64,000 bases of DNA from Allocoleopsis franciscana PCC 7113 (GCF_000317515.1 NC_019738.1:3994001-4058000), one strand, 5' to 3'; counted from the stretch's first letter, positions 10,522-30,311 are shown. Numbers and translations are program-made. The notes: generated by a model not told the origin, from the sequence alone.

Positions 10522-10748
10522 TGTACATTCACAAATTAAATGTCGTTATTTAACAAATTAATGTCGTAGAAAGATTAGCGCGTAATCTACATTCTACAAG
10601 GGTTTCAGTGACTTTCAATCTTAACTAAGGTGAACGTCCGCATTTAACATTTTATACGTCGCAATTTAGTACCTTTAACAATTTATATGTCGGTTATTGG
10701 CTAAAACTTCAATTTGAATCTTAACTAGACTTCACAAATTGTTTGTCG
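10522..10748 (+). repeat. CAST left end with five TnsB-type binding sites
   Basis: The terminal 24-bp site (10522-10545) is followed by four related sites in the same orientation at 10550-10566, 10644-10661, 10675-10692 and 10731-10748. They share the pattern TTAACAAATTAATGTCG or TTCACAAATTGTTTGTCG, that is TTMACAnnTTnnnnGTCG. The spacing is uneven: the first two are adjacent and the others lie 80 to 210 bases inside, as expected for the long left end of Tn7-like elements. Confidence 0.9.
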
Positions 10749-10862
10749 CATTTTAGGGCAAGCCAGACTATCATTTGGACAGCGGTTAGTACATTGGTTC
10801 TGTTTGTTGCTTACTGCTCACTCTATTATGTGGAACTCTCGCATCACGTATGTAGGTGAAGA

Positions 10863-12659
10863 ATGTCTCAGGATTCACAACGTTTTTTTTCTCCGCATGA
10901 AGGTAATAAGCCAACTGAACTTCAACGAACTAGCAAGAACCCTGCTAAATCTCACAGACTCCCTAGTGATGAACTAATCACAGACGAGGTTAGGCTTCGG
11001 ATGGAGATAATTCAACGTCTTACCGAGCCATGCGATCGCAAAACCTACGGTATCAGGAAGAGGGAAGCTGCCGAAAAGCTGGGAGTGACACTTCGTAGCA
11101 TAGAGCGGTTACTCAAAAAATATCAGGAACAAGGGCTGGTAGGACTCACTCAAACCCGCTCGGACAAGGGACAGCGCCGCATTAGTGCTGACTGGCAAGA
11201 GTTCATCGTTAAAACTTACAAGGAGGGTAATAAGGGTAGCAAACGGATGCTCCGGAATCAGGTGTTTCTCAGGGTGAAAGGGAGAGCCAAGCAACTCGGT
11301 CTAAAGCCTGAAGAGTATCCTAGCCACCAGACTGTTTATCGAATTCTGGATGAATACATTGAGGGGAAAGAGAGAAAACGGAATGCACGAAGTCCTGGCT
11401 ACTTAGGGTCACGGTTAACACACATGACCCGTGATGGGCAAGAACTGGAAGTGGAAGGGAGCAATGATGTCTGGCAGTGCGATCATACTCGTCTCGATAT
11501 CAGGATAGTGGATGAGTACGGAGTTTTAGACCGCCCTTGGCTAACAGTGATTATCGATTCCTACTCCCGCTGCCTGATGGGATTTTTCTTGGGATTTTTC
11601 GCTCCTAGTTCGCAAATCGATGCACTAGCCTTACGTCATGCCATTCTGCCGAAGTTCTACGGTTCCGAATACGGGCTTGGCGACAAAGAGTTCGGGACAT
11701 ATGGAATACCTAGTTACTTCTACACTGACGGTGGCAATGATTTCCAATCCATCCACATTACAGAGCAAGTAGCAGTTCAGTTAGGTTTTAGTTGTGCCTT
11801 AAGAAGAAGACCTTCTGACGGTGGTATTGTCGAACGATTCTTCAAAACACTTAATGACCAAGTGTTACGCAATCTACCAGGATATACCGGGTCAAATGTA
11901 CAAGAGCGCCCAGACGATGTAGACAAAGACGCTTGCCTGACCCTCAAAGATTTAGATATTATCCTCGTGCGCTACATGGTCAAAGAGTATAACGGCCATA
12001 CTGATGCTCGATTTATTGTCAAGGAGTACAACGCCGACGATACTGATGTTAAATTGAACGCCCAAACTCGGTTCATGCGTTGGGAAGCTGGATTGATGAT
12101 CGAGCCTCCCCTGTACGATGAACTGGACTTAGTGATCGCTTTGATGAAGGCAGAGCGGCGCACAGTTGGAAAATACGGCACTCTTCAGTTTGAAAGTTTA
12201 ACCTACCGTGCCGAACATTTGAGAGGTCGGGAAGGCAAAGTTGTTGCCCTACGCTACGACCCCGATGATATTACGACCATTTTCGTCTACCAGATTCATG
12301 AGGATGGCACGGAGGAGTTTCTCGATTATGCCCACGCTCAAGGCTTAGAGGTTGAGAGGCTCTCTTTGAGAGAACTTCAGGCTATCAAAAAGAGGCTGCG
12401 CGAGGCGAGGGAGGAAATTAACAGTGAAACCATTCAAGCCATGCTTGAGCGGGAGGAATGGACTGAGGAAACTATCAAGCGGAACCGCCAACAGCGCCGA
12501 AAAGCTGCTCACGAGCTAGTCAACCCCGTACAGTCCGTTGCTGAGAAATTCGGGATTGTTGAACCCCAAGAAGCTGATTCGGAAGCTGAGGAAGAATTGG
12601 AGGCAGAACTGCCAAGATATAAAGTTCAGTACATGGACGAACTATTTGACGATGACTAG
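10863..12659 (+). CDS. tnsB: TnsB-type DDE transposase of a V-K CAST
   Basis: TnsB binds the transposon ends and performs the 3' strand cutting and joining. The 598-residue protein starts with a helix-turn-helix region (REAAEKLGVTLRSIERLLKK), followed by a second DNA-binding region. An rve/DDE core has D207 in VWQCDHTRLD, D289 in YFYTDGGNDF and E324 in GIVERFFKTLND. The C-terminal part has a Mu-type beta-barrel region and an acidic tail (RYKVQYMDELFDDD) expected to contact TnsC. Length and catalytic spacing match the Scytonema TnsB as I recall it. It lies 114 nt inside the innermost left-end site, and the tnsC start follows 9 nt after its stop. No lesion is visible. Confidence 0.96.
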   Translation: MSQDSQRFFSPHEGNKPTELQRTSKNPAKSHRLPSDELITDEVRLRMEIIQRLTEPCDRKTYGIRKREAAEKLGVTLRSIERLLKKYQEQGLVGLTQTRSDKGQRRISADWQEFIVKTYKEGNKGSKRMLRNQVFLRVKGRAKQLGLKPEEYPSHQTVYRILDEYIEGKERKRNARSPGYLGSRLTHMTRDGQELEVEGSNDVWQCDHTRLDIRIVDEYGVLDRPWLTVIIDSYSRCLMGFFLGFFAPSSQIDALALRHAILPKFYGSEYGLGDKEFGTYGIPSYFYTDGGNDFQSIHITEQVAVQLGFSCALRRRPSDGGIVERFFKTLNDQVLRNLPGYTGSNVQERPDDVDKDACLTLKDLDIILVRYMVKEYNGHTDARFIVKEYNADDTDVKLNAQTRFMRWEAGLMIEPPLYDELDLVIALMKAERRTVGKYGTLQFESLTYRAEHLRGREGKVVALRYDPDDITTIFVYQIHEDGTEEFLDYAHAQGLEVERLSLRELQAIKKRLREAREEINSETIQAMLEREEWTEETIKRNRQQRRKAAHELVNPVQSVAEKFGIVEPQEADSEAEEELEAELPRYKVQYMDELFDDD

Positions 12660-12668: not shown

Positions 12669-13513
12669 ATGACAACTGCAAAATCAAGCGTTCAGGAATT
12701 TGATGATTTTCAGGCTCTGAGTCCCGAAATCCAGGCGGAAATTGAGCGGTTAAGTCGTCAGCCTTACTTGGAACTCGACCATATCAAAGAATGCCATATC
12801 ATATATGGATGTACGAACTACTTTTATCACGGATGACGGGGCTATTGCTTGGAGAATCTCGCAGTGGCAAAACTGTGACCTGTAAAACATTCACTAACCG
12901 TTGCAATCAACAGGCAAAAACTAAAGATAAGCGGGTTATGCCTGTAATTTATATTCAAATCCCCAAGAACTGCGGTTCAAGAGATTTATTCATCAAAATT
13001 CTCAAAGCACTAGGACATCGAGCTACCAGTGGAACTATTACAGATTTACGCGAACGGACGCTCGACACGCTTGAGTTGTTTCAGGTTCAGATGCTGATTA
13101 TTGATGAGGCAAATCATTTGAAGCTGGAAACTTTTTCCGATGTGCGGCACATCTACGACGACGATAATCTCGGACTCTCCGTTCTTCTCGTCGGTACTAC
13201 CAATCGACTGACCAGAGTTGTTGAGCGAGACGAGCAGGTTGAAAATCGTTTTCTGGAACGATACCAGCTAGATAAAATAAACGATAAGGAATTTCAACAA
13301 CTTGCAAAAATTTGGGTGCAAGATGTTCTCGGAATGTCAGAAGCCTCAAATCTAATTAAAGGCGAAACACTCAGGCTTTTGAAGAAAACAACCAAAAGGC
13401 TTATTGGTCGCTTAGACATGATTCTACGCAAGGCAGCGATTCGCTCACTGCTCAAAGGATACGAAACTTTAGACGCAGAAGTGTTGAAACAAGTAGCGAA
13501 ATCGGTGAAGTAA
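12669..13513 (+). pseudogene. tnsC: TnsC-type AAA+ regulator with a 5-bp duplication frameshift
   Basis: TnsC forms ATP-bound filaments on target DNA and links Cas12k/TniQ to TnsB. Translation should start at ATG 12669, with an AGGGGG site just upstream (MTTAKSSVQEFDDFQ), and reaches ELDHIKECH in frame. A tandem CATAT CATAT at 12795-12804 then shifts the frame, and the upstream frame stops at 12834-12836. The other frame carries the rest: IWMYELLL, Walker A GESRSGKT, Walker B VQMLIIDEA, sensor VLLVGTT, and the LIGRLDMILRKAAIRSL end. Removing one CATAT restores one continuous protein of about 279 residues, close to the usual 276. An internal ATG at 12791 could yield a 240-residue protein lacking about 40 N-terminal residues. 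Confidence 0.88.
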
Positions 13514-14058
13514 TGGATGAGCTGGAAACACAACTTTGGCTAAATCGAGTTGAACCCTATGAAGGGGAAAGCATTAGCCACTTTCTCGGTCGTTTTCGAC
13601 GGGCAAAGGGTAATAAATTTTCGGCTCCCTCTGGCTTGGGTAAGGTAGCAGGACTTGGGGTAGTCTTGGTACGGTGGGAAAAGTTGTACTTGAATCCGTT
13701 TCCTACTCGCCAGCAGTTGGAGGCGTTAGCCGATGTCGTGATGGTTGATGCGGATAGGCTTGCTCAGATGCTACCACCAAAAGGTGTAACGATGAAGCCA
13801 AGGCCAATTCTGTTGTGTGCAGTTTGTTATGCGGAGAACCCCTATCATCGGATTGAGTGGCAGTTTAAGGAGCGATGGGGGTGCGATGGTCGCTCCGCGA
13901 ACCGCCTTCGGCATCGCCATCAGTTGCCTTTGTTAGGGAAATGCATTAACTGTGAGACTCCATTTCCAATTCCTGCGTTATGGGTGGAAGGAGAGTGTCC
14001 CCATTGTTTTCTGCCGTTTGCTAGGATGGCGAAACGACAGAAGTCCCGTAGAGCTTAG
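13513..14058 (+). CDS. tniQ: TniQ protein of a V-K CAST with an in-frame insertion
   Basis: TniQ is the small adaptor that caps the TnsC filament at the Cas12k-bound target. The protein has 181 residues against about 167 in the Scytonema element. The N-terminal TniQ motif is present (RVEPYEGESISHFLGRFRRA), as are zinc-finger cysteines LLCAVC, WGCD, GKCINCE and GECPHC. Bases 13888-13914 add nine residues (GRSANRLRH) between WGCD and RHQLPLL, splitting what is normally a CDRH motif. The insert is GC-rich and palindrome-like, similar to small dispersed repeats of cyanobacteria. The ATG overlaps the TAATG of tnsC, indicating translational coupling. Function may be impaired or tolerated. Confidence 0.9.
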   Translation: MDELETQLWLNRVEPYEGESISHFLGRFRRAKGNKFSAPSGLGKVAGLGVVLVRWEKLYLNPFPTRQQLEALADVVMVDADRLAQMLPPKGVTMKPRPILLCAVCYAENPYHRIEWQFKERWGCDGRSANRLRHRHQLPLLGKCINCETPFPIPALWVEGECPHCFLPFARMAKRQKSRRA

Positions 14059-14103
14059 CTTCGCTTACGTTATGCTCTTTGAACCCTCATTCCGGTAGCT
14101 AAA

Positions 14104-14535
14104 ATGCTTGCATCTAGTAGCGTTCAAATCCACATTGCAGCCCTCTCCTTGATGCTCTTACTCGCCAGTCGCAAGCAGGAAGAAGCAAACGGCAGCCAAG
14201 AGGAAGAAGTTAGGTTAATTCCTCCAGTGTCAGTACAGAAGGAGGCGCAGTTAGGAATCCAGCTATACGAGAAGTATGGAGGTAGGGAAAAATTTAGGCT
14301 ACCTCAAGCTCTTGCTCAGGCAAGCCCATTAACTCTCAAAGATATTGATGAAATATTGGATTTTTTTGAAAATAACGAATTCGATCACAAAGCGCCAGGG
14401 TGGAGAAACCCAGCCCATCCTTCGATTGAATGGATTCGTTGGCTTCTGATGGGAGGCTATATAGCTAATAACTGGGCACAGACTGTGAAGCGGATAACAA
14501 CTGCCGTCATTGAAACTCCATCATCAGATATCTAG
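14104..14535 (+). CDS. hypothetical cargo protein
   Basis: This 143-residue protein lies 45 nt after tniQ on the same strand. I do not recognise it. A hydrophobic N-terminal helix (VQIHIAALSLMLLLASR) is followed by an acidic, Glu-rich linker. The later part is helical (LTLKDIDEILDFFENNEFDH) and ends with an aromatic patch (IEWIRWLLMGGYIANNW). It could be a membrane-anchored small protein. It sits at the junction between the transposition module and the oppositely oriented defence operon and may be a vestige or cargo of unknown role. Confidence 0.45.
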   Translation: MLASSSVQIHIAALSLMLLLASRKQEEANGSQEEEVRLIPPVSVQKEAQLGIQLYEKYGGREKFRLPQALAQASPLTLKDIDEILDFFENNEFDHKAPGWRNPAHPSIEWIRWLLMGGYIANNWAQTVKRITTAVIETPSSDI

Positions 14536-14732
14536 GGCGATCGCATCCAACAACTACAGCAGTAGATTGAGACATGGCAGTCAATGCGATCGAAGTTGGG
14601 AGGGATTGACGGTGAAGGAGCGATCGCTTCTCCTTATGGCGACTTGCTTTGTCATGGGATGGAGTGGCAGTTTAAGTCAACGACAGGGTATGAACACTAG
14701 TAAATTGGCAACTGAGACTGCCTAGTTTCCAC

Positions 14733-16808
14733 TCAAATCAAATGGGTGAGATTTAAGTTAAATCCCAGTCGCTCTGCCTCTTGTAAGATATTCACTGCTT
14801 GGTTTGCCTGTTTGCGAGAAGGGTTTTTGTTAGTAGCTGCAAGTCGTCCCAGGCTAAAGGCTAGACTGCGTTGCCAGGGTTGCAAGTTGCTGGTTTCCTT
14901 GGCCCAGTGAGAGAGCTGAAACCAAGTATCAGCAGGCACTTGACTAACTTGAGCAATGATTTCTAAATCGAGGGAATCGGGGCTGTCGATACCTTTGTCA
15001 ACTTGATGTGAAGTTCCCTGATTGACTCGGATTAACTCCTTCAAGAACGCGGCAGGTAACTCAATATCAAGAGCCTGAATAGTCTTCCAACAGTCCTCCT
15101 TTTTGCACCATTCGGTGACATTGCGACCTTCAGGAGGGTCTGTGATGGTCTGATGGACTTGTCGGGAAACAATCGCGATCGCTTCCCCTATGGCTGAGGA
15201 AATACCTTGTTGTTTCCAGATTGTATCCACATCGATACACTGGGCTGTTTTGTGGCAGAGGTAGGCGATGGTATAGGTTACGATATTAGCGCGATAGCCG
15301 CCGAATTGCTCGGCTTGGACAATCTTTTCTGCTGACCTGAAGAGGATTGCTTTGGCAACGAGCCGCTTAAAATAGGTTTCGTCAACTTCAAACCTGCCTC
15401 GTTTAGTTAGGCGAACTGTAAAGTCGATAAAGTTCTTCTGCGCTCCCCGACTTACCAGGTGTGGTAACTGCTCCCAGGTATTCTCAAACTTTGCTAGGTC
15501 TGTCTTGGTGAACTTCTGTGAAGTAGGATGCACAGTGGCAAAGGCTTTCTTCTTTGCCAGGGTTGGTTCACGACCCTTAGCATCAAGATACTGTCCTCGC
15601 GCCCGTTCATAGAACCAGCGCGTTTGTCGCTGCGTCCCATCTACTGCTGGTGCCCAGATGGTGCGGGATAGTTCCTCGATTTTGATGTGGAAGGGGTCGT
15701 TAGCTGAAAAATCGGCTTCACTCACCTTATTTTGGTTGTTGGCATAGCGGGAGATGAGCGGGACAATTTCATTAACCTGTTCTGGGTCTACTACCGAGAG
15801 CTTTGCTTGTACATAAATATCAGATACATCAGCTTTGTCTTTCCTAACTGCTTGATAAATCGATGCAGTCGTTTGACCACCATTGACAATTTGCAAGTCC
15901 CGTGCATATTTGATGCCTTTACCGCCTCCAACCAAATCAGTTAGTTCAACGGCTTCGGCGGTGGCGGAAATTCCGTTGTTGTAGGCTAAGAAACGATGGG
16001 GTTCTTTGAGGATTGTTTCCCTAATTCCTTTGTTGACTTTCCCTCTGGCTTGTAGGAAGGAGCGAACATTGCGTTCTAGCAGACGGGGACCATACTCGGC
16101 GTATATTTTATAGAGGATTTCACCGGGAATGATTGCCATGTATGCGCTGTAGTCTGAATTAGACGCTGGCATGGGCAAGCAGGGAATTGATACACCATAT
16201 TGGGATTCAAAGTCAATTTCAATTGTTTCTCGTTGTTTACCTGAACTTAGGCAACGGTAAGTTCTTTCAATATCCCAGACATGAAAGGAACAGATTAAAT
16301 TTTCAATCGTTTCATGTTTTTTGACATCTAGCGTTGTACGACCATCGGTAAACAAGTACAGCCTTACTTGGCTTAGTTGCTTCCTTAAATCGTGGATATT
16401 AAGCGCCATATCGAAGACGTTGGAGGCTTCTTCAAGGGATTGATGGTATCCCTTGAGTGCTTGCTGCAAAAAACTCGTGAGTCTGCGAAATGCTGTTTCA
16501 ACCTCTTGCTTAGTTACGGTTACAGGAGGAACACTCTGGGTATGAATTGATATGAATAAATTGAGACAGTCTAAGTCTTGATTAATGCTGTAACCATTGA
16601 CTTTAATCCCACGACTTCTGTAGTAGCAGACTTCTCCATCTTCCAGTTCTCCTGCTGCGGTGAGGGATTCAATCATTAGACGAGTGAATTCATCCTCTCG
16701 GAAAGAGTCTGCCTCTCCATCTTCGCTGTCTATTCCACCGTCAGAGCTACTAATTACTTCCTGTCTGAGGTCTTCCGCAAATTGAATTAATCCTGTTTGA
16801 GTACTCAT
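14733..16808 (-). CDS. AIPR-family abortive infection protein (last gene of the Mza-like operon)
   Basis: The 691-residue protein carries the AIPR domain (abortive infection phage resistance), known from phage-exclusion and modification-linked clusters. The signature is in the middle: RFLAYNNGISATAEAVEL and LQIVNGGQTTASIYQA, followed by VDPEQVNEIVPLISRYANNQ and FSANDPFHIKIEELSR. The C-terminal third is helical and less conserved. The start at 16808 overlaps the stop of the upstream PD-(D/E)XK gene by 4 nt (ATGA), showing translational coupling. With that gene, Z1, the ATPase and the methyltransferase it forms the gene set known as an Mza-type defence system. The biochemical activity of AIPR proteins is unsettled; a nuclease-related role is often assumed. 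Confidence 0.92.
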   Translation of the reverse strand: MSTQTGLIQFAEDLRQEVISSSDGGIDSEDGEADSFREDEFTRLMIESLTAAGELEDGEVCYYRSRGIKVNGYSINQDLDCLNLFISIHTQSVPPVTVTKQEVETAFRRLTSFLQQALKGYHQSLEEASNVFDMALNIHDLRKQLSQVRLYLFTDGRTTLDVKKHETIENLICSFHVWDIERTYRCLSSGKQRETIEIDFESQYGVSIPCLPMPASNSDYSAYMAIIPGEILYKIYAEYGPRLLERNVRSFLQARGKVNKGIRETILKEPHRFLAYNNGISATAEAVELTDLVGGGKGIKYARDLQIVNGGQTTASIYQAVRKDKADVSDIYVQAKLSVVDPEQVNEIVPLISRYANNQNKVSEADFSANDPFHIKIEELSRTIWAPAVDGTQRQTRWFYERARGQYLDAKGREPTLAKKKAFATVHPTSQKFTKTDLAKFENTWEQLPHLVSRGAQKNFIDFTVRLTKRGRFEVDETYFKRLVAKAILFRSAEKIVQAEQFGGYRANIVTYTIAYLCHKTAQCIDVDTIWKQQGISSAIGEAIAIVSRQVHQTITDPPEGRNVTEWCKKEDCWKTIQALDIELPAAFLKELIRVNQGTSHQVDKGIDSPDSLDLEIIAQVSQVPADTWFQLSHWAKETSNLQPWQRSLAFSLGRLAATNKNPSRKQANQAVNILQEAERLGFNLNLTHLI

Positions 16809-17812
16809 GAATTGCCGCTGATTAGAGAAATTACTTTAATTTCTGGTAAGGAAAAACGCCTGCATTCGGCAACACTGATGGTGTAACGTACATCCCCAAC
16901 ACCATTTCGCAAATCAGCTTCGACAATTCTGGGAAAATCTCCCTCAACTTTGAAGTAGTTAACCTCGCGTTCGGTGTAACCAATTTGTTCGTAGCGGGGG
17001 GTATGGATATCTAGATATCCGACTTCAAAGAGCAGTGTTTCTAGTTCTTCCTTGGCTAGCGGGTCATTTTCGACTAGCGACCTGACACTGGCAACAATAT
17101 CCGGTAAAGACTCCCCTCGTTTTTGTCTGACATCAAGGGACAGGTGTAGCAGAATTAACGTACCAGTACCAGTATCATCTAGCTGTCGTTCACTTGCGAT
17201 CGCTAGTTTCTGATGCTGCTTTGCTACAGTGGTCTTGACCTCGATAGCACAGCGTTCTAATTGGAAATCCTGTTGGGTTCCTCTCGGACCAGTCCAGCAT
17301 TGCACCCCTTGACGGGAACCAATTTGAGGAATTACAACCTGCCTCAGAAACCACAATTCACCATAGAGTCCTTGCTGTGCGGCGGTACTGAGTCCTTCAG
17401 GATTATGCCTTTCTAGAAAAGCTTGCCATCGTCGCAGACGGGTGATGAATCCAACTACGGCGTTTCGCTCGTCCGCAAGGGAAGCGATGTGATAAACAAT
17501 GTCCTGCACCAATGTGGTGAATATATCGCTGTATCGTGGGTCAGTAAGAACCAGTTGGAGAGTAAGATAGGAATTATCATCATTTGGCAGAGCGACACGC
17601 CTAATCTCAAAGCTGCTAGATTTTGGAAAAACAGTGCCTCTTTCAACTGATGAATGCTTTACCCGCATCATTAAAAGGCGTGTATTAGTGGGCTTTTCAA
17701 TTGCTAAATAAACGTCATATTTAACCTCTGGTAAAATACGACGGGTGAGATAGCCAGAAGATACAGTTACAGTATCTTCCTCTAACAGCTTCCAGGTATC
17801 CTGCACCGTCAT
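16805..17812 (-). CDS. PD-(D/E)XK motif protein (DUF4420 type)
   Basis: The 335-residue protein belongs to the DUF4420 PD-(D/E)XK family found beside Z1 and AIPR genes. The nuclease-like core is visible as GLYGELWFLRQVVIPQIG, then WTGPRGTQQDFQLERCAIEVKTT, with the Asp and the ExK residues in place. Further family blocks are LLHLSLDVRQKRGESLPDIV and the VRYTISVAEC strand near the end. It presumably cuts or senses DNA within the defence complex. It overlaps both neighbours by 4 nt (with the Z1 stop and with the AIPR start), so the three proteins are likely made in fixed ratio. Confidence 0.9.
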   Translation of the reverse strand: MTVQDTWKLLEEDTVTVSSGYLTRRILPEVKYDVYLAIEKPTNTRLLMMRVKHSSVERGTVFPKSSSFEIRRVALPNDDNSYLTLQLVLTDPRYSDIFTTLVQDIVYHIASLADERNAVVGFITRLRRWQAFLERHNPEGLSTAAQQGLYGELWFLRQVVIPQIGSRQGVQCWTGPRGTQQDFQLERCAIEVKTTVAKQHQKLAIASERQLDDTGTGTLILLHLSLDVRQKRGESLPDIVASVRSLVENDPLAKEELETLLFEVGYLDIHTPRYEQIGYTEREVNYFKVEGDFPRIVEADLRNGVGDVRYTISVAECRRFSLPEIKVISLISGNS

Positions 17813-20562
17813 ATCTCACCAAATTCCTGTTCCCAGTAAACGTTATTAACCTGGTATTCAATCCTTCTAGCTGTAGGGCTGTTAGGGAAACTCACAGCAA
17901 AACCGATGACAGGAAAATCAGATTCTATTTCTGCTGGGTCTAGTGGATAAAGCAGCAGTAACCCATTTCTGGGCAAACGCTTGGAACGTATAACTTTTCC
18001 GTTGGGAGTTTTACTAGAACTCGGTGGTTTTCCAGCTAGTTCTCTTAAATGTCGGGTTTCATCAAGAATTGCATCACGAGTTGGTTGAGGCAAATCAAGC
18101 CACTCATCTGTTGGACTCAGCAGACGAGATTTTTTCAGCCGATATTCGGCAGTGCTGGAGTCTGCTTGCTGGCGTTCAATTAAACCAACGCCATATCCAG
18201 CAATGCTTGCCCTATTTTTAGGGCGCTGGCTTGAGATGAGAATAACTGTCCATGAGACAAGCTCATTCAGGGGACGTTGGGCTTTTATGTACTGAGTTAG
18301 CAATGAAGTTTTTGCAACTCTACTTTTAGGATGTGACTCATATCCTGATAGAAAATCAATGATTTGAGCAAAAGAGACTTTCTTCCAAATATAATTGTCA
18401 TTCTCTCGTTCAATATATGCACCCAGATTTTTCAGCAGTTCTTCTGTCGCTTCAAAATTTCTCTGGTTGATTTGATTGTCCTTGTAAAAAATAGTTGTCT
18501 CGCTGATACTTCCGGCAAAGGAGAGTTCCATTTTTGTGCCTGTTTTCATTTTGTTAGCACCAGTAATCATTAGTCCTTGTGGGTGCGTGCGAACTTTGAG
18601 ACCAAAATCTTCAGGCGTTCCACCGCTATCAGCCATATAATCAAATTCTTGTCGGAGTTCCTCACTGGCGATGGTTATATGTTTGTACCATTCAACTAGA
18701 TCATCCGTCGTATAAAGTCGGCAAACATCAAGATATCCGGGTCTATAACCAAACCAGCGTCCCATTTGCATCAATGTGTCGTACATTTTGGAAGCCCGGA
18801 GATAATAACTTACGGTTAAACCTTCCAAAGTTAGACCACGAGACAATTTATTGCCACCAATGGCAATGACACTCAGACCATTTTTATATTCCCAATAGTC
18901 AAGAACATCCTTAGCTGTGCCGTTTATTTTCTTGACTTGAATCTTGGACACTACCTGCTTCAGTAAGGGTTTAACTTCCTCCCACGATACAGGTTGCAAC
19001 TGAGTATCAGATATGGCTTGGGTAGTTGGCAGGAAATCTCTTGTCCATAACTGCTCAAATTCTCTTAGTACCTGATCCAAGGCGTTACCATCCCCATACC
19101 GCAGCCTTCTTTTCAGAGAAGCCAACTCATCTCGAACTTGCTCTGTAACTTCGGATTGGACATTTGCATAGCGAGTGACATGAACCAACATTGAATTATG
19201 TTCATTCTCCTGTCCTCGTGCCATCCTCATAGCACAGGCAAGAATAAATGCTCTAATTGCTTTTTTAAGAGACCAGGGAAGATAATCAGGAACATGATCC
19301 TTTTTGTGTTTGTTGGGCATCCAGGATTCATGGTCATCTACAAGCCTGATAATCGGCAAACCTTCTGATGCTTCCAAGCTAGATGTTTGATCTACATCCA
19401 GTCCAAACACCTGAGCGGGTCCTATATAGTTGGATGGCGTTGGTAGATTAATGATGAAGCTGCGAGGAAAGAGGTCTTCTCCACATTCTGGTGTAGTCAC
19501 ATCTGGGTAGATAAAAATATTGGCAAATGGGGTAGCAGTATATCCTACATAAGCACTCTTCTCAAAACTATAAAGTAACTGCCTGATTAATTTATTTATT
19601 GCTGAAATCTCATGATCTTCTTCAAGATTACCACTCTCATCAAATTGCAAAGGGTTTGTATTGATAGAGGCATTGTCAGCCTCATCATCGATAATGAGAA
19701 TAGGCACATCTCTGACAATTTTTCTTCCTGATTCTTCGTGGACAATTCCTCTAACACTTAATGCCCATTTAAAGAGATTAGTTAAAATAGACTTATTCTT
19801 CTTCACGACAAGCAAGAGTGGGTCTTTACCACCAGGATGAACTCCAAAACTATTCACTACCCGCCGATTAAAATCCCCGTTATTGGCACTGCTTGTTGCT
19901 GAATTGGCAACGAGCCACTTCCCAATAGGAATTTTCCCTACACCCAAAAACGAATTCCCTCGATCAAAAGCTCTGTTTACCTGAGAATCAAAACCAAGGA
20001 AGCCTTCATCTAAACGTAGTTGTGTTTGGCTTCGCAGACTATTCTGCATACCAGCCAGCACAATAATTAGTTTGTATCCGGCATCAACTGCCTTGCAAAT
20101 CAGACCCGTATAGTTCGCTGTTTTTCCCGACTGAACTTGTCCTACAACCATTCCTCTTCGATCCCAAGCGCCGGGACGTTGGGGGTCTTCGAGCCGTTCC
20201 AGAACAGAGTTTGTGAGTCGGTCAACACTATCTATCGTTGCTGGTGCCCAACCCTTTTCCTCTTCCAGATAACGTCTGTAACGATCCCAGAAATCCCAAA
20301 TAATTTCGCTATTGCGGTCAGGCAACCAGTGGATATGATCCTCTTGATTATCCAGAATTGTCCCGATGCCAATCCAGGTATTGAAAAGACTTTGAAGCTC
20401 CCGAACTAGCTTTTCCTCATCCACTTCAACAGCATGATTCCGCTGGCTTCCAAGCATAGAAAGAACAACTCTAACTTTTTCTTGAATAATTTCCCGCGTG
20501 GGGGTTGGCTCAACCTTCAACATAACTTGAGCTAACTGCCGAGCCATATCATAATCATTCAT
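17809..20562 (-). CDS. Z1-domain superfamily II-like ATPase
   Basis: The 917-residue protein contains the Z1 domain, a P-loop ATPase related to superfamily II helicases. Walker A is GQVQSGKTANYTGLICKAVD near residue 144. The DEAD-like motif is ILIIDDEADNASIN, motif III is GYTATPFANIFI, and the helicase C-terminal motifs are IAIGGNKLSRGLTLEGL and MQMGRWFGYRPGY. A strong GGAGG site precedes the ATG at 20562. It likely remodels or moves along DNA for the PD-(D/E)XK and AIPR partners. It begins 18 nt after the ATPase gene and overlaps the next gene by 4 nt. Confidence 0.93.
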   Translation of the reverse strand: MNDYDMARQLAQVMLKVEPTPTREIIQEKVRVVLSMLGSQRNHAVEVDEEKLVRELQSLFNTWIGIGTILDNQEDHIHWLPDRNSEIIWDFWDRYRRYLEEEKGWAPATIDSVDRLTNSVLERLEDPQRPGAWDRRGMVVGQVQSGKTANYTGLICKAVDAGYKLIIVLAGMQNSLRSQTQLRLDEGFLGFDSQVNRAFDRGNSFLGVGKIPIGKWLVANSATSSANNGDFNRRVVNSFGVHPGGKDPLLLVVKKNKSILTNLFKWALSVRGIVHEESGRKIVRDVPILIIDDEADNASINTNPLQFDESGNLEEDHEISAINKLIRQLLYSFEKSAYVGYTATPFANIFIYPDVTTPECGEDLFPRSFIINLPTPSNYIGPAQVFGLDVDQTSSLEASEGLPIIRLVDDHESWMPNKHKKDHVPDYLPWSLKKAIRAFILACAMRMARGQENEHNSMLVHVTRYANVQSEVTEQVRDELASLKRRLRYGDGNALDQVLREFEQLWTRDFLPTTQAISDTQLQPVSWEEVKPLLKQVVSKIQVKKINGTAKDVLDYWEYKNGLSVIAIGGNKLSRGLTLEGLTVSYYLRASKMYDTLMQMGRWFGYRPGYLDVCRLYTTDDLVEWYKHITIASEELRQEFDYMADSGGTPEDFGLKVRTHPQGLMITGANKMKTGTKMELSFAGSISETTIFYKDNQINQRNFEATEELLKNLGAYIERENDNYIWKKVSFAQIIDFLSGYESHPKSRVAKTSLLTQYIKAQRPLNELVSWTVILISSQRPKNRASIAGYGVGLIERQQADSSTAEYRLKKSRLLSPTDEWLDLPQPTRDAILDETRHLRELAGKPPSSSKTPNGKVIRSKRLPRNGLLLLYPLDPAEIESDFPVIGFAVSFPNSPTARRIEYQVNNVYWEQEFGEI

Positions 20563-20580
20563 TTCAAGCCTCCTCTATAT

Positions 20581-22080
20581 TTATTCATCTAAGCTGGCTA
20601 CCAGTTCTTCAAAGTGCTGAAAAGGTTCCATTGTAATTAAGCGTCTCCGAGCTTCTAGAGGAGATAATCCACTTTTTATAAGAGCGTTATAAACTTGTAT
20701 CATTACTTCTTTGACTTCTTTAGAAAGCACTCCCTCAAAAGGTTGGCTATGCTGATCTAAGTGTTCGGCACTGTCCAGCCAGATTTGCTGTACGGGAACA
20801 GTCTCTTGAATCAGTCGCAGTAATGCCCGGATAACCTGGCGATGTTCCTTGGGAACATTGAGTGCCTCTTTAACTAATGGATGTTCTTGGTTAATCGAGT
20901 AAAATACCTTGCCATGTTTTACCTTCTTCTGCCAGGGAAAGACGTAACTTTCTGAAGACTGTCTGGCAATGATTTTTCCTCGATGTCTGTATATATCCGC
21001 AGCTTTTCCCCGCGTCAGTCTTGCAATGCGCTTGAGGTCTGCTCTTAAAGACGAAGGTGGACGCGCTCTAGATTTTTTAACATCGATACTCCAGTCACTA
21101 TCCATTGAATTGGGCAGGTCTACCTGGATACGAGCCAATTTACAATGCTCATCCCTCTGTAAACCCAGACCCAGCCAGTCACCTGCTACCAGCATCCTTT
21201 CATTCCTGTAAATGTAGAAACCCTGTTGAGCATTCCAGCCGTTTGGTCCCGCCGCTTTCTCATAGGTTTGCTGATCGACTTTTGAGTGATGAGGCAGCAC
21301 ATAAGGTTGAACAACTACCCGCTCTGACCCGATATACAGATTCTCCTCTGGCAAAAACTGAGTAGCTTTCTCTTTAGTCAGAAATGGTTCCCAAGGTTCG
21401 ATGGGCAAGCCGTTAATCCAGATTTGTAACTGATTCCGCCGCTCCAAGAACCTGTGGAATACCATAACCAGATGCTTTTCCACATCTTCCATAATTTCTA
21501 GAAAGCGGTTTTGTGCCTTCTGATCGTCAGTCTTTGTCCCGCCTACAAGCCGATCCATGCACTCCCATAGCACCACAGTCCCGCTTGTTATTTCGTCTAG
21601 TTCTGCCAGTCGCGCTTCCGACCCCGGTGCTGCTGAACGAAGTAATCGCCACTCGCCAGTCTGGTTAACATAATCTAAATCCCAGCGACGGGTCACTGGC
21701 TTGTCACCTACTGCCCGTGAACGAACCGTGAGCCGCCTGCACTGGGAAAATGAGGCTGTTTTGAGTCCCAGACCAAATCGCCCAAGGTCATCCGGCTCCC
21801 GTTCTTCTAGTGGATTCCGGCTACCCGGTCGCATGGCGTTGATGAGTTCTGTTTCGGTCATACCCTTGCCATCGTCCCGAATAGACACATAAGACTCGGA
21901 ACCGTCCCAGAAGAAAGTCAGCCAGACATTCTTCGCCCCTGCGGAAATGCTGTTGTCAATCAGATCTGCGATCGCCGTTTGAATGTTGTAGCCAAAAGCC
22001 CGCAGTGATTCAATCATTGCAGGCGCATGAGGCTCCGCGATGTCGTATTCTTCCTCAGTCAGCTTAGTAGCTAGAGTCAT
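20581..22080 (-). CDS. MutL/MORC-like GHKL ATPase
   Basis: The 499-residue protein has a GHKL-type ATP-binding domain at the N-terminus: IADLIDNSISAGAKNVWLTF (N-box Asn), then VSIRDDGKGMTETEL (G1 box) and LGRFGLGLKTASFSQCRRLTV (G2 box). This matches the prokaryotic MutL-derived ATPases from which eukaryotic MORC proteins are thought to derive, typically linked to Z1, DUF4420, AIPR and a methyltransferase. The middle resembles an S5-type domain (DWSIDVKKSRARPPSSLRAD). The family probably forms an ATP-closed DNA clamp. It is separated from the methyltransferase gene by 306 bases and lies 18 nt before the Z1 gene. Confidence 0.92.
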   Translation of the reverse strand: MTLATKLTEEEYDIAEPHAPAMIESLRAFGYNIQTAIADLIDNSISAGAKNVWLTFFWDGSESYVSIRDDGKGMTETELINAMRPGSRNPLEEREPDDLGRFGLGLKTASFSQCRRLTVRSRAVGDKPVTRRWDLDYVNQTGEWRLLRSAAPGSEARLAELDEITSGTVVLWECMDRLVGGTKTDDQKAQNRFLEIMEDVEKHLVMVFHRFLERRNQLQIWINGLPIEPWEPFLTKEKATQFLPEENLYIGSERVVVQPYVLPHHSKVDQQTYEKAAGPNGWNAQQGFYIYRNERMLVAGDWLGLGLQRDEHCKLARIQVDLPNSMDSDWSIDVKKSRARPPSSLRADLKRIARLTRGKAADIYRHRGKIIARQSSESYVFPWQKKVKHGKVFYSINQEHPLVKEALNVPKEHRQVIRALLRLIQETVPVQQIWLDSAEHLDQHSQPFEGVLSKEVKEVMIQVYNALIKSGLSPLEARRRLITMEPFQHFEELVASLDE

Positions 22081-22386
22081 TATTTTTACTTGGTGAACCT
22101 AGGGTCAGGCTAGCCCTCTAAGTTGGAGAGGCAATAAATTTCACTGCTCAAGCTCAGTAAACCACCAACCCCAACCCGTCTATTTAATAGAATTCCCAAA
22201 ATACTTTCCGAAAGCACACCAGTACTTAGATTCCCTCTGGCTCATAAGACTTTTTGACCGATTCCATAGCAGTAACGGTCTGGCTATTGATTCATTCATT
22301 GCCTGAAGTAAACAGAATATTTGCCCTTTGATTAAGGGTTTGGGTCTCTGACTGAACTCTTGATTTAGAGATGATTTCTTTTTTGA
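22081..22386. other. intergenic stretch, probable promoter of the ATPase-Z1-PD-AIPR operon
   Basis: No gene is visible in these 306 bases between the methyltransferase and the ATPase gene. There is a short inverted repeat (TAGGGTCAGGCTAGCCCTCTA) near 22100. The gap suggests that the four downstream genes have a promoter of their own, separate from the methyltransferase. Confidence 0.4.
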
Positions 22387-23622
22387 CTATAGCGCATCAA
22401 ACAAACTGAGCTGAGTGCTTGCATAGTACGCTTGTACCTGTTTGGCAATAGGTTTGGCGATCGCTTCAGCAAGAAGAGGTGGTACAGAATTACCAACCAG
22501 CTCAAACATTCTTGTCATAGGTGCATCAAAGACAAAGTCATCAGGGAAGCTTTGAAGTCTGGCAGCTTCTCTCACAGAAATACTACGATTCTGCTTAGGA
22601 TGAATGTAAGCCAGACAATCTTTTCCCATATGAGCCGTTAATGTCCAAGCAGGTTTATCCCAAGGCAAGCGCTTATATTTATCATCAAATATATCCCATC
22701 GGTATCGCCTCATAAATTCAGGTAAATCTAGGTACTTACCTCCTGGTGAAAGCATGGCAAAGCAAATCATATCCAGTGGATTATGGGCACGGCAGATATG
22801 GTTCATTACACCATCTGGTTCTTTTTTTTTTCTTATCTTTTTGCTCATTTTTATTTGGTATTCTGATTTAGGTTTTGATAGATAAGGTTGCTTAGTGTCA
22901 AGTTGCTTTGGGCCACTGCTTTTTTCTCTTAAAGGTATATAAGGAGGTGTCAGAGGGATTAGATCACTGATAGCTTCACTTACTGAAACTTTTTTTCTTC
23001 TAAAAGCTTTAGGAAATTCAAACTTGAAATCCAAGTCTTGTCGAATGCCAACTATAAATAGACGTTGTCTAACTTGAGGAACACCATAATTAGAAGCATT
23101 TAGTATACTGTGTTGAATTCTGTAACCTGGAAAACTTTCTCGTTGACGTGGCAACCCTAATTCAAGGCTATTAAGTATCTTCGAGAATAAATCTTTCTTT
23201 AGTACTAAAGCATCAACGTTTTCCATAACGAAAAACAAAGGTTTATAATACTGCAAGCATTTAACAAAATATTTATATAAAAAATTTCTTGGATCTTCTT
23301 CTACTTTTTTGCCTAAGGATTTCATTTTGCCAATACCAACCCTAGAAAAAACTTGACAGGGAGGCCCACCAATTAAAATGTCAACTTCTCCTGGGTTGAT
23401 TGGCAATTTCTGTAAATCAAGAGAACTGATATCTAGAGCAGGTAATTTAAACTTACAGTTAGGAAAGTTTCTGTGATGAGTGCGAATAGCATGGGAATTA
23501 TTATCAATTCCTCCCAGGATTTTACAACCAGCGTTCTGAAAGCCCAAACTCATTCCTCCAGCCCCACAAAATATATCAAGAACAGTAGGAATTTTAAAAT
23601 TTGCTGGAACCTTTTTTGACAT
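22387..23622 (-). CDS. DNA (cytosine-5) methyltransferase
   Basis: The 411-residue protein is a C5 cytosine methyltransferase. Motif I is VLDIFCGAGGMSLGFQNAG. Motif IV is ILIGGPPCQVFSRVG, with the catalytic Cys in PPCQ. Motif VI is FFVMENVDAL, motif VIII is VRQRLFIVGIRQ, and motif X is FELVGNSVPPLLAEAI. A target-recognition region lies between residues 220 and 330; the sequence modified cannot be predicted. The gene is clearly more AT-rich than its neighbours (a long T-run lies near 22829), suggesting a different origin. It heads the Mza-like set and would protect host DNA if the system restricts unmodified DNA. Confidence 0.94.
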   Translation of the reverse strand: MSKKVPANFKIPTVLDIFCGAGGMSLGFQNAGCKILGGIDNNSHAIRTHHRNFPNCKFKLPALDISSLDLQKLPINPGEVDILIGGPPCQVFSRVGIGKMKSLGKKVEEDPRNFLYKYFVKCLQYYKPLFFVMENVDALVLKKDLFSKILNSLELGLPRQRESFPGYRIQHSILNASNYGVPQVRQRLFIVGIRQDLDFKFEFPKAFRRKKVSVSEAISDLIPLTPPYIPLREKSSGPKQLDTKQPYLSKPKSEYQIKMSKKIRKKKEPDGVMNHICRAHNPLDMICFAMLSPGGKYLDLPEFMRRYRWDIFDDKYKRLPWDKPAWTLTAHMGKDCLAYIHPKQNRSISVREAARLQSFPDDFVFDAPMTRMFELVGNSVPPLLAEAIAKPIAKQVQAYYASTQLSLFDAL

Positions 23623-24399: not shown

Positions 24400-24624
24400 C
24401 TAGCCTTTCTCGGCTGGAGGTTGCTTTTTTGGGGGTAGCGGAATCTTACCTTCTGCCTCTGCTTCCTCCATAGCCTTCTCCACAATGTATGCAGCCAAAT
24501 TGGCGACGGGTCTTCCTTGGTAATTTGCCCACCGCTCCAACTTTTCATAAACCAAATCAGGCAGAGTTAGGAAAACTCTTTTGCTCACAGGTTCTATTTC
24601 ATCCAAACCGCCTTCATCGTACAC
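24400..24624 (-). CDS. ribbon-helix-helix (CopG/Arc-like) DNA-binding protein, candidate CAST regulator
   Basis: The 74-residue product begins at GTG 24624 with an AAAGGAG site about 10 nt upstream. The core SKRVFLTLPDLVYEKLERWA, followed by GRPVANLAAYIVEKAMEEAE, fits a ribbon-helix-helix fold: a basic beta strand, helix A, turn, helix B. The Lys/Pro-rich tail is disordered. Its promoter region holds a TAGCTGATAT-type motif that recurs upstream of cas12k, so it may repress both itself and cas12k. Type V-K loci often carry a dedicated repressor (CvkR, MerR type, in Anabaena); no MerR-type gene is present here. The assignment as CAST regulator is inference. Confidence 0.65.
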   Translation of the reverse strand: MYDEGGLDEIEPVSKRVFLTLPDLVYEKLERWANYQGRPVANLAAYIVEKAMEEAEAEGKIPLPPKKQPPAEKG

Positions 24625-25345: not shown

Positions 25346-25393
25346 TTTAAACAAAGTTAACAAAAACCTATCAGATTGAGAGGAATTCGATTC

Positions 25394-27316
25394 ATGCCTC
25401 ACTTGGTCACAGAAGAACGTTTTAGGGTGGTTAGAAGTACTCCGTTGCTGCCGACTTCTAGCACGAACAAGGGCATGACCTCCATTTCCACCTTCGATAT
25501 CACCAAAGAACCCCTGCTCGACCTGCTACGGGACATCCAACAGGGCAAAATTCAGCTCGTAGACTTTCAGCGTTCCTGGTGTTGGGACGAAGAGCGCATT
25601 GAACGGGTAATTGCTAGCGTCTCCCTTGGTTTCCCCGTAGGAGCGGTAATGCTCCTTCAGCAAGGCAACCCGGATGTAAAATTCAAACCCCGCCTTGTCG
25701 AAAGCTTGAACCTTGCTCATCCTCCCGTACCAACAGCTTTGATTCTTGACGGACAGCAACGCCTCACCAGTCTGTTCATGTGCCTGCTATCCGACCAACC
25801 TGTGCGGATTGACCGAGGCAAACGCTACCCACCAGAGCAACGTTGGTACTACATCGACATTGCCCAAGCCCTCGACTACCCCCACACCGATCGCCGAGAT
25901 GCCATCTGGGGCTTAACGGTCGATAAAAAGCTCTACCGGCCCGGACAACCTGTAATTGACTGTTCGACACCGAAAAAAGAATTTGAACTCGGTTTATTTC
26001 CCATTTCCCAGGTCTTTAATTTCCCTCAATGGCGCTCTCAATACTGCAAATACTGGCATTACGACCCCCAAAAATTAGCCTTGATTGATGAGTTTGAAGC
26101 AACCGTCATCAAAAAATTCGAGCATTATCAGATGGGATTGTTCGTCTTGAGAGCCGAACTACCTAAAGAAGCTGTTTGTTACATTTTCGAGGAGAACAAC
26201 AAACGACAGTGCGAATTAACACAATTTGACTTGTTAACCTCCTCTTTTGCTGCCGCTGATTTTGACCTGCGCTCAGACTGGATAGCCAGAGAGAAACGCT
26301 TTAGTTCTCATCCAGTTTTGCGCCTGTTAAAGCCAACAGATTTTTTACAGGCGATCGCTTTGATGGGCAACTATGCGCGACGAGTGCAAGCTCAGCAGCA
26401 GGGTTGTCATCCTGAACGGCTACCGGGAGTAGCGTGTAATCGTCAGGATGTACTGGGTTTAGAGTTAGCGCAATATCAGCACTGGATGGAACCGATCAGT
26501 GCCGCCTTTGAGGAAGTGGCTCGTTTTCTCCATACCCAAGCCATCTTCGATGCTAACGACCTTCCTTACCCCATGCAGCTTGTGGTTATGGCTCCTTTGT
26601 TTGCGATTCTAAAAGAGGGAATAAAACTGGACTGGGTGCGGCAACACTTACAACAGTGGTTTTACAGTGGGGCCGCATCGGGGATTTATTCACGTTCGCG
26701 GGAAGCGACTGCCGGGAAGGATTTGCTCGAAGTCCCTAAATGGATTAAGGGTGGCGAAGTGCCATCAACTGTAAAAGAAGCACATCTATCGGCAGAACGG
26801 TTGCAGAGTTTAGTGAATTCTCAAGGGGCGACTTACAGAGCGATCGCGGCTTTACTTAGACGTGATGGGGCATTAGATTTTGTCAGTGGCGAACCCATTA
26901 CGGCAGCTCGTTACTTTGACGAGAAGATTGAGAACCACCACATCTTTCCTCAACAGTGGTGCAAGCAACAAGGCATTCCCCGCTCGCGTTATAACAGCAT
27001 TATTAACAAAACACCCCTAACGGCAAAGACCAATAAGTTTTTAGGGGGAAAAGCCCCATCCGAGTATCTGGCAAAGTTAGGAGAACAGGGAATGTCAAGG
27101 CAGAGGATTAATGAGATTTTGCGCTCGCACCTAATTGAGCCGACAACTTTGCACAACGATGATTTTGAGGCATTTTTTGAACTAAGGACGCAGGCGCTGT
27201 TAGCCAAAATTGGTAGAGCGATGGGTAAGAGTTTAGTTGGGGAGTCGTTGCCGGAAAATGGGAGTGGTAATGGATTCCATCCAAAGAGGTTTATCGATTA
27301 TCACGCTCCCAAATAA
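25394..27316 (+). CDS. GmrSD-like DUF262-DUF1524 protein (type IV restriction-like)
   Basis: The protein has about 640 residues. The N-terminal DUF262 domain, a ParB/sulfiredoxin-like nucleotide-handling fold, shows LVDFQRSWCWDEERIERVIA and ILDGQQRLTSLFMCLLS. The C-terminal DUF1524 domain is an HNH-type nuclease with ENHHIFPQQWC and INKTPLTAKTNKFLGG. This architecture is that of GmrSD, which cleaves DNA carrying modified (for example glucosylated) cytosine, and of related anti-phage proteins. Starts at 25376 (TTG), 25394 (ATG) and 25475 (ATG, MTSISTFDIT) are possible; the family usually begins near the last. It is cargo, placed directly before cas12k. Confidence 0.88.
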   Translation: MPHLVTEERFRVVRSTPLLPTSSTNKGMTSISTFDITKEPLLDLLRDIQQGKIQLVDFQRSWCWDEERIERVIASVSLGFPVGAVMLLQQGNPDVKFKPRLVESLNLAHPPVPTALILDGQQRLTSLFMCLLSDQPVRIDRGKRYPPEQRWYYIDIAQALDYPHTDRRDAIWGLTVDKKLYRPGQPVIDCSTPKKEFELGLFPISQVFNFPQWRSQYCKYWHYDPQKLALIDEFEATVIKKFEHYQMGLFVLRAELPKEAVCYIFEENNKRQCELTQFDLLTSSFAAADFDLRSDWIAREKRFSSHPVLRLLKPTDFLQAIALMGNYARRVQAQQQGCHPERLPGVACNRQDVLGLELAQYQHWMEPISAAFEEVARFLHTQAIFDANDLPYPMQLVVMAPLFAILKEGIKLDWVRQHLQQWFYSGAASGIYSRSREATAGKDLLEVPKWIKGGEVPSTVKEAHLSAERLQSLVNSQGATYRAIAALLRRDGALDFVSGEPITAARYFDEKIENHHIFPQQWCKQQGIPRSRYNSIINKTPLTAKTNKFLGGKAPSEYLAKLGEQGMSRQRINEILRSHLIEPTTLHNDDFEAFFELRTQALLAKIGRAMGKSLVGESLPENGSGNGFHPKRFIDYHAPK

Positions 27317-29937: not shown

Positions 29938-30049
29938 GTTTCATCACCCCTCCCGCCTTGGGATGGGTTGAAAGCCCGCTTCAAGGAGTGCAACATTGGG
30001 CATCCTTACCGCGTTTCATCACCCCTCCCGCCTTGGGATGGGTTGAAAG
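29938..30049 (+). CRISPR. minimal CRISPR array: two 37-nt repeats, one full spacer
   Basis: Two identical 37-nt repeats (29938-29974 and 30013-30049) begin GTTTCATCACCCCTCCC and end GGGATGGGTTGAAAG. Between them is one 38-nt spacer (29975-30012) starting CCCGCTTCAAGGAGTGC. The repeat end TTGAAAG is characteristic of type V-K. The spacer has no match elsewhere in this window and may direct insertion into plasmids or phages. A degenerate third repeat-like segment follows downstream. Confidence 0.95.
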
Positions 30050-30070: not shown

Positions 30071-30110
30071 GAATTTGTAGGGAAGGTTGAAAGGCGCACT
30101 TCGTTCGGGA
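30071..30110 (+). ncRNA. delocalised degenerate repeat and 17-nt homing guide to tRNA-Pro
   Basis: After the last repeat and about 20 nt, a degenerate repeat half (GAATTTGTAGGGAAGGTTGAAAG; positions 30071-30093) keeps only the 3' portion of the repeat that pairs with the tracrRNA. The next 17 nt (30094-30110, GCGCACTTCGTTCGGGA) are identical to the sense strand of the neighbouring tRNA-Pro gene across its D-stem end and anticodon arm. This is the known homing arrangement of V-K CASTs, with a short atypical guide. Confidence 0.93.
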
Positions 30111-30189: not shown

Positions 30190-30301
30190 CGACAATAATT
30201 TGTTAACAGTTGCCTAGAAGCAAAGTCGCCGTAACAGCGACGTGAATTTGTTAAAAACGACATCAATCTGTTAATAGCGACATTTAATTTGTGAATGTAC
30301 A
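30190..30301 (-). repeat. CAST right end with four TnsB-type binding sites
   Basis: Sites oriented opposite to those of the left end lie at 30190-30207, 30238-30254, 30258-30274 and 30278-30301. The outermost is a perfect 24-bp inverted copy of the left terminus. All share CGAC-N8-TGTTAA or the terminal TGTGAATGTACA. The right end is compact (three sites within 64 bases), as usual for Tn7-like elements. Confidence 0.92.
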
Positions 30302-30311
30302 ACAATTATAA

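What the first reader, a model, noticed from the sequence alone, without database searches (positions are those of the whole stretch)
14733..23622. Mza-type defence system carried as cargo by a V-K CAST
Seen: five minus-strand genes encode a C5 methyltransferase, MutL/MORC-like ATPase, Z1 ATPase, PD-(D/E)XK protein (DUF4420) and AIPR protein, the last three linked by ATGA overlaps. Known: this set was described as a MORC-ancestor modification system and as an antiviral Mza-type system. Inference: a homing RNA-guided transposon delivers a complete anti-phage system next to a tRNA gene, as defence islands of other Tn7-like elements do, but I know of few reports for V-K elements.
Basis: partly seen in the sequence, partly recalled or inferred. 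Interest (0 to 1): 0.85.

Follow-up and report, generated by a model that had tools for sequence, protein, structure and literature searches.

The report
Swappable defence cassette in RNA-guided transposon
A jumping DNA element that uses an RNA guide to settle beside a tRNA gene in a cyanobacterium carries an intact five-gene anti-virus system of the MORC/Mza type, in the same slot where its sister elements carry a different defence system (type I restriction), so the element looks like a carrier with exchangeable immunity cassettes.

Summary
Five intact minus-strand genes at 14733-23622 (C5 methyltransferase, MORC ATPase, Z1 ATPase, DUF4420 nuclease, AIPR) lie inside a type V-K CAST (10522-30301) with a 17-nt anchor guide against the adjacent tRNA-Pro. 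No catalytic motif is lost; dN/dS against the closest relative is 0.08-0.13.

Three corrections. (1) The operon is Mza-like, not Mza proper: MzaB-E match but stay far below NCBIfam's cut-offs, no MzaA was seen, and the gene set equals the published 'type II' Z1/DUF4420/C5/AIPR/MORC system. (2) tnsC is out of frame and there is no 5-bp target duplication, so delivery by this copy is not shown. (3) Restriction-modification cargo is already described as frequent in V-K CASTs; this system is rare there (1 of 42 Cas12k genomes).

New here: border sequences flanking the operon also flank type I restriction in the same genome's second CAST. A sister species has the orthologous element at the same tRNA with type I restriction instead. 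The element is a mosaic whose Cas12k-CRISPR module matches a tRNA-Val-homing element, joined at a CRISPR repeat, while the tRNA-Pro guide is retained. Cargo replacement by homologous recombination is the best explanation.

The parts
10522..10760 (+). CAST right end (tnsB side) starting TGTACATTCACAAATTAAATGTCG, with further TnsB-site-like repeats
   Evidence: 84% aligned to the right end of the orthologous element in G464
10863..12659 (+). TnsB transposase, 598 aa, DDE residues present
   Evidence: Pfam Mu-transpos_C and HTH; 89% to G464 C4 TnsB; motifs
12669..13513 (+). tnsC, reading frame broken near 12795-12801 (5 extra nt in an AT-rich run relative to G464); the ORF from 12791 (240 aa) keeps the ATPase domain but loses about 43 N-terminal residues
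   Evidence: G464 tnsC is intact at 279 aa
13513..14058 (+). tniQ, chimeric: the 5' part is like G464 C4, the 3' part is like the extra tniQ tail in CAST2
13879..14575 (.). right border of the cargo slot: tniQ 3' tail plus small ORF o143 (14104-14535)
   Evidence: 94.4% over 697 bp to CAST2 of the same genome; 90% to G464 C6
14645..14676 (+). short tniQ remnant next to the end of the Mza-like operon
   Evidence: 91% over 32 nt to CAST2 tniQ, 92% over 25 nt to the window's own tniQ
14733..16808 (-). AIPR-family protein (MzaE-like)
   Evidence: Pfam AIPR and AIPR_N, PADLOC MzaE 360 bits; 73 of 73 residues invariant in 20 homologues kept
16805..17812 (-). DUF4420 PD-(D/E)XK nuclease-like protein (MzaD-like), D...EVK motif ending at residue 193
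17809..20562 (-). Z1-domain ATPase/helicase (MzaC-like), Walker A GQVQSGKT, DDEAD, motif VI QMGRWFGYR
20581..22080 (-). MORC/MutL-type GHKL ATPase (MzaB-like), N box, G1 and G2 boxes, MORC signature GFYIYRNERML
22387..23622 (-). C5 cytosine DNA methyltransferase, PCQ and ENV motifs
   Evidence: the same gene leads the operon in L138, L008, L011, L014, L021, L146
24081..24330 (.). left border block of the cargo slot (shared with CAST2 and with elements of G464 and G564)
24400..24624 (-). ribbon-helix-helix protein (RHH_5), candidate Arc-type CAST regulator, 2.8 kb from cas12k
   Evidence: Pfam RHH_5 6.5e-18; 93% in G464 C4
24723..25345 (+). two small ORFs (105 and 102 aa) repeatedly found upstream of cas12k
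25376..27316 (+). GmrSD (DUF262)-family gene directly upstream of cas12k
   Evidence: Pfam GmrSD_N 9e-22; same pairing in other elements
27458..29371 (+). Cas12k
   Evidence: 82.6% to G464 C10 but 48.6% to the same-site element in G464
29938..30049 (+). CRISPR array: repeats 29938-29974 and 30013-30049; the mosaic breakpoint lies at the second repeat
30079..30110 (+). truncated repeat and 17-nt anchor spacer GCGCACTTCGTTCGGGA (30094-30110)
30190..30301 (-). CAST left end (guide side)
30311..30386 (-). tRNA-Pro(CGG), attachment site; protospacer 30363-30347 with PAM GTA, 62 nt from the element end

Best explanation
The five genes are an intact MORC-type, Mza-like modification-and-defence operon that occupies the cargo slot of a tRNA-Pro-homing type V-K CAST. 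Inferred action: the C5 methyltransferase marks host DNA; the MORC GHKL ATPase and the Z1 ATPase act as an ATP-driven clamp/translocase on incoming DNA that lacks the mark; the DUF4420 PD-(D/E)XK protein cuts it; AIPR acts as the abortive-infection-like effector. The operon most likely entered a resident element by homologous recombination between border sequences shared among V-K CASTs (tniQ tail plus o143 on one side, the 24081-24330 block on the other), probably replacing a type I restriction cassette. Separately, the GmrSD-Cas12k-CRISPR module was replaced by that of a tRNA-Val-type element while the tRNA-Pro homing guide was kept. Shown: genes, intact motifs, purifying selection, element ends, guide-target match, mosaic identities, other cargo in sister elements. 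Inferred: biochemical mechanism, anti-phage activity, recombination as the route, direction of exchange.
For: Domains and intact reading frames. Every residue invariant in 19-20 divergent homologues of MzaB-E is kept; the methyltransferase departs from the residues invariant in 6 close homologues at 6 of 179 positions, none in the PCQ or ENV motifs. dN/dS 0.08-0.13 for all five genes against G557. Same gene order MTase-MORC-Z1-DUF4420-AIPR in G557 and in other cyanobacterial loci. Element ends, anchor spacer, PAM and 62-nt spacing. G464 has the orthologous element between the same flanks at the same tRNA-Pro with TnsB 89% but type I restriction cargo. Shared borders around type I restriction in CAST2, in a G464 C27 element with Cas12k and, with parts missing, at G000 6.89 Mb. 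Stepwise identity table. Second repeat = junction between the G464-C10-like and G464-C4-like parts. Cas12k of G464 C4 is 88% to that of G514 at tRNA-Pro, so the window lineage is the one that changed.
Against: No activity data; the methylated motif is unknown. Some border homologies are short (143-250 bp), and independent gain at one spot is possible. Only one V-K CAST with this operon was found, so its arrival route rests on one case. The closest Mza-like operon (G557, 79-86%) is on a contig too short to show its context. tnsC is out of frame.
Confidence: 0.75

Rival explanations
1. The operon is a classical restriction-modification system of the MORC type whose main role is addiction or stabilisation of the element rather than anti-phage defence.
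For: A methyltransferase is present and conserved at the head of the operon; sister elements carry type I restriction in the same slot; Iyer 2008 files such neighbourhoods as restriction-modification (PMC2292703).
Against: MzaB-E homologues belong to a set described as a validated antiviral system (Gao 2020, cited in PMC9523054); the system also occurs away from CASTs, where it need not stabilise an element. The two roles are not exclusive.
Confidence: 0.15
2. The operon came in as part of the whole transposon by RNA-guided transposition, and the mosaic reflects older divergence plus multiple insertions and deletions at the tRNA site.
For: V-K CASTs move replicatively and several elements coexist per genome; no target-site duplication on either species' element, which fits a history of layered insertions.
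Against: Flanks, right end, tnsB-tniQ, left end and anchor guide are orthologous to those of G464 (mostly 84-96% per 250 bp) while the middle is unrelated, and sharp identity changes fall inside tniQ and at a CRISPR repeat: replacement inside a resident element, not a fresh insertion.
Confidence: 0.15
3. The operon is host DNA that became enclosed between CAST ends by chance (pseudo-cargo).
For: The closest operon relative is in a same-family genome where no Cas12k was found.
Against: The flanks outside both ends are syntenic in G464 around the orthologous insertion, and the operon lies in a slot that holds other defence systems in sister elements.
Confidence: 0.03

Closest known systems
Mza (mzaABCDE; Gao et al. 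2020, as cited in PMC9523054)
   Same: MORC/MutL ATPase, Z1, PD-(D/E)XK and AIPR proteins in one operon; PADLOC MzaB-E models match strongly
   Different: Scores for E, D, C, B are 474/1050, 175/420, 905/1500 and 542/850 of the NCBIfam equivalog cut-offs; no MzaA (described as a sigma factor) seen; a C5 methyltransferase leads the operon
'Type II' Z1/DUF4420/C5-MTase/AIPR putative defence system found by gene-embedding (PMC9523054)
   Same: Same gene content: Z1, PD-(D/E)XK nuclease, cytosine methyltransferase, AIPR and an associated MORC
   Different: That set was described from genome context in general; no CAST linkage is mentioned in the section read
MORC restriction-modification neighbourhoods (Iyer et al. 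2008, PMC2292703)
   Same: MORC ATPase with the GhXhhpXXRhl signature, second ATPase, nuclease, mostly cytosine methyltransferase, AIPR
   Different: Carried here as cargo of an RNA-guided transposon
Cyanobacterial V-K CASTs with restriction-modification cargo (PMC9938897; Tn7-like cargo survey PMC8649781)
   Same: Architecture, tRNA homing by truncated guide, defence cargo between tniQ and cas12k
   Different: Cargo is a MORC/Mza-like system; element is a visible mosaic; no regulator directly divergent from cas12k; tnsC out of frame

Membership tests
Mza anti-phage system | MzaB, MzaC, MzaD, MzaE homologues in one operon | tested here: met
   PADLOC 471, 809, 103 and 360 bits; operon 14733-22080
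Mza anti-phage system | NCBIfam equivalog cut-offs for MzaB-E | tested here: not met
   542/850, 905/1500, 175/420, 474/1050
Mza anti-phage system | MzaA (sigma-factor-like) gene | tested here: not met
   no such ORF between the operon and cas12k, and no PADLOC match for the neighbouring small ORFs; whether PADLOC's library would reach a distant MzaA is unknown
'Type II' Z1 system of PMC9523054 | Z1 + PD-(D/E)XK + cytosine MTase + AIPR, with associated MORC | tested here: met
   no sequence model of that family was available for a score
Prokaryotic MORC (Iyer 2008) | GHKL motifs plus GhXhhpXXRhl signature in the S5 domain | tested here: met
   GFYIYRNERML at residue 287; N box, G1 and G2 boxes; motif from PMC2292703
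Mza anti-phage system | protection against phage | not testable with these tools
   needs expression and phage challenge
Type V-K CAST | Cas12k with tnsB-tnsC-tniQ in order and no tnsA | tested here: met
   no tnsA among the ORFs scanned (for the ORF list)
Type V-K CAST | TGT ends and 17-nt anchor spacer matching a tRNA with GTN PAM 46-82 nt from the left end | tested here: met
   TGTACA ends; 17 nt, PAM GTA, 62 nt; range from PMC9938897
Type V-K CAST | 5-bp target-site duplication | tested here: not met
   ATTCT versus ACAAT; also not seen in G464
Type V-K CAST | intact transposition genes | tested here: not met
   tnsC out of frame near 12800; the others are open
Type V-K CAST | regulator (CvkR/Arc) divergent from cas12k | tested here: inconclusive
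   an RHH_5 protein in reverse orientation, but 2.8 kb away behind GmrSD; such regulators were found in 86 of 118 published systems

The most novel reading that the evidence does not exclude
V-K CASTs of this genus have a dedicated immunity slot with conserved borders (tniQ tail/o143 and the block upstream of GmrSD-cas12k), in which whole defence operons are exchanged by homologous recombination between coresident elements. Likewise the Cas12k-CRISPR module can be exchanged through CRISPR repeats while the homing guide is kept, so that targeting, effector and cargo evolve as separate modules.
Probability: 0.5. Interest if true: 0.7.

Novelty: new member of a known kind. Interest (0 to 1): 0.55.

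Why it matters
How Tn7-like elements and CASTs gain cargo is stated to be open: the 2024 review says undiscovered mechanisms of cargo capture are likely (PMC11406308), and the cargo survey left the share of homologous recombination unaddressed (PMC8649781). Here, two coresident elements with shared borders and different defence systems, plus a same-site ortholog in a sister species, give a concrete footprint of cassette exchange that can be tested. It also adds a MORC-type system to the known V-K cargo, and shows that the effector module and the homing guide can part company at a CRISPR repeat.

Tried and rejected
Equivalog Mza: rejected on NCBIfam cut-offs and missing MzaA. Mza-like systems as common CAST cargo: rejected; among 42 Cas12k genomes only this one has the long Z1, the other ten genomes with a near-complete MzaC match in the order sample have no Cas12k, and none of 80 MzaC loci shows V-K tns or cas12k genes in the flanks held. 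That tblastn used V-K proteins and up to 10 kb flanks, so other Tn7-like elements could be missed. Operon decay: rejected. A phage or plasmid home: only distant Z1 homologues there, at most 46% identical. Target-site duplication: looked for, not found. Saito 2021, Hsieh and Peters and Gao 2020 were not held, so a prior mention of this cargo in their supplements cannot be excluded. One wrong paper was opened by a misremembered DOI.

Full report
WHAT IS THERE. The five genes are at the stated coordinates, on the minus strand, all open. Pfam and PADLOC identify AIPR, DUF4420, Z1, GHKL ATPase and C5 methyltransferase with Pfam E-values of about 1e-30 or better. The last three genes overlap by 4 bp. 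The MORC ATPase carries the signature GhXhhpXXRhl (GFYIYRNERML, residue 287) that unites MORC proteins (Iyer 2008, PMC2292703), with N, G1 and G2 boxes. Z1 keeps Walker A, DDEAD and motif VI; DUF4420 keeps D...EVK; the methyltransferase keeps PCQ and ENV. In alignments with 19-20 homologues from bacteria and archaea, the window proteins keep every invariant residue of MzaB-E. Against the nearest operon (G557, same family, 79-86% identical, same gene order) dN/dS is 0.08-0.13 for all five genes. The operon is therefore under selection for function.

THE ELEMENT. Matching ends TGTACATTCACAAATTAAATGTCG lie at 10522 and 30301; a two-mismatch scan of the genome with the first 16 bases finds no other exact match. 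Inside are tnsB, tnsC, tniQ, cargo, cas12k, a short CRISPR array, and a truncated repeat with a 17-nt spacer that equals part of tRNA-Pro with PAM GTA, 62 nt from the left end. This fits the published V-K layout, in which the tRNA lies at the guide-side end and the PAM is 46-82 nt away (PMC9938897). Two departures: tnsC is out of frame near 12800 relative to the intact gene in G464, and no 5-bp duplication flanks the ends. Whether the frame break is real or a sequencing error is open; if real, the element is probably not moving by itself at present, although a second CAST in the genome encodes a (distant) TnsC.

SISTER ELEMENTS. The same genome has a second V-K CAST (CAST2, G000:C1, about 5.618-5.636 Mb; Cas12k 45%), with a MerR-type regulator next to cas12k, a GmrSD gene, and a type I restriction system with an AAA ATPase and one unassigned gene as cargo. 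Same-genus genome G464 has an element at the same tRNA-Pro between the same flanks: the cysC side at 82-96% per 250-bp step, the tRNA side at about 93%, TnsB 89%, intact TnsC, both ends and the anchor guide; but its cargo is type I restriction plus other genes and its Cas12k is only 48.6% identical.

MOSAIC STRUCTURE. A stepwise comparison divides the window element into blocks: right end to tniQ 5' part, about 90% to G464 C4; tniQ 3' tail and o143 (13879-14575), 94.4% to CAST2, where this tail follows CAST2's own complete tniQ as an extra piece; the Mza-like operon, unmatched; 24081-24330, 89% to CAST2 (143 bp) and to G464 C10; 24380-24830, 93% to G464 C4; GmrSD-cas12k-tracr-CRISPR (24789-30049), 89% over 5.3 kb to a G464 element that homes to tRNA-Val; from the second CRISPR repeat (30013) outward, 92-93% to G464 C4 again. 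G514, another genus, has at tRNA-Pro a Cas12k 88% identical to that of G464 C4, so the older state at this site was the G464-like Cas12k and the window lineage changed. The same border blocks bracket the Mza-like operon in the window and type I restriction in CAST2, in equivalent positions and orientation. A further G464 element (C27) has o143, type I restriction, the border block, GmrSD and cas12k in that order; a decayed locus at 6.89 Mb of the own genome has o143-like and border-like pieces around restriction gene remnants.

HOW IT LIKELY WORKS. Defence: inferred from family knowledge; the methyltransferase would mark self, MORC plus Z1 would provide ATP-driven clamp and translocation, DUF4420 the nuclease, AIPR an abortive-type effector. 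Only gene content, intact motifs and selection are shown. Cargo exchange: homologous recombination at shared borders explains unrelated cargo between nearly identical flanks; V-K elements coexist in one genome, as here, giving the partners. Module exchange at a CRISPR repeat explains how a Cas12k like that of a tRNA-Val-homing element now sits with a tRNA-Pro guide. Direction and timing are inferred.

RARITY. Cas12k matches occur in 46 of 386 cyanobacterial genomes sampled, a few of them weak or fragments. In 42 genomes with Cas12k, only this one has the long Z1 gene; two others have a Z1 protein of another, shorter type. In 388 genomes of the order, 11 have a near-complete MzaC match; the ten others lack Cas12k. 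Eighty MzaC loci from the species collection show no V-K CAST genes in their flanks. Samples are partial and flanks limited.

COMPARISON WITH THE KNOWN. The operon is nearest to Mza and matches the 'type II' Z1 system (PMC9523054) and MORC restriction-modification neighbourhoods; it should be called Mza-like. Restriction-modification genes are stated to be frequent V-K cargo (PMC9938897), and defence genes are enriched in Tn7-like cargo (PMC8649781). The main text of the cargo survey has no mention of AIPR, MORC or MutL. The kind is known; the member and the exchange footprint are new as far as the held literature shows.

Noticed in passing
window 25376-27316; also G000:C1:5621968-5622630, G464:C10:1843-2574, G464:C27:52905-53633, G564:C695:5819-6547, G564:C916:4820-5551, G019:C60:15137-15865, G091:C3:1616535-1617260: A GmrSD (DUF262)-family gene lies directly upstream of cas12k, same strand, in at least eight V-K elements from several genera, far more than expected for a gene with about four copies per genome; it may be an accessory of the Cas12k module rather than ordinary cargo.
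   Followed up: partly
window 14104-14535 (o143); homologues at G000:C1:5632102 and 6899866, G464:C6:1930, C1:371245, C27:43329: A 143-aa protein without Pfam match, in only 8 of 388 genomes of the order, sits next to tniQ or a tniQ tail in these elements and beside restriction genes; in G663 a homologue lies about 1.7 kb from a Z1 gene of another type. Function unknown.
   Followed up: partly
window 12669-12836 / 12791-13513: tnsC is split into two frames at an AT-rich run; the gene is intact in G464.
   Followed up: partly
window 24400-24624: RHH_5 protein like the 'Arc_2' CAST regulators, but 2.8 kb from cas12k with GmrSD and two small ORFs in between.
   Followed up: partly
L138 1032-1727 (G557): A sigma-70 region 2 protein lies just downstream of the AIPR gene of the closest Mza-like operon; it might be the MzaA counterpart that the window lacks, though PADLOC does not name it.
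   Followed up: partly
L137, L139, L140, L143, L144, L145: Several cyanobacteria carry only MTase-Z1-DUF4420 (63-80% identical to the window) without MORC and AIPR, a reduced core version of the system.
   Followed up: no
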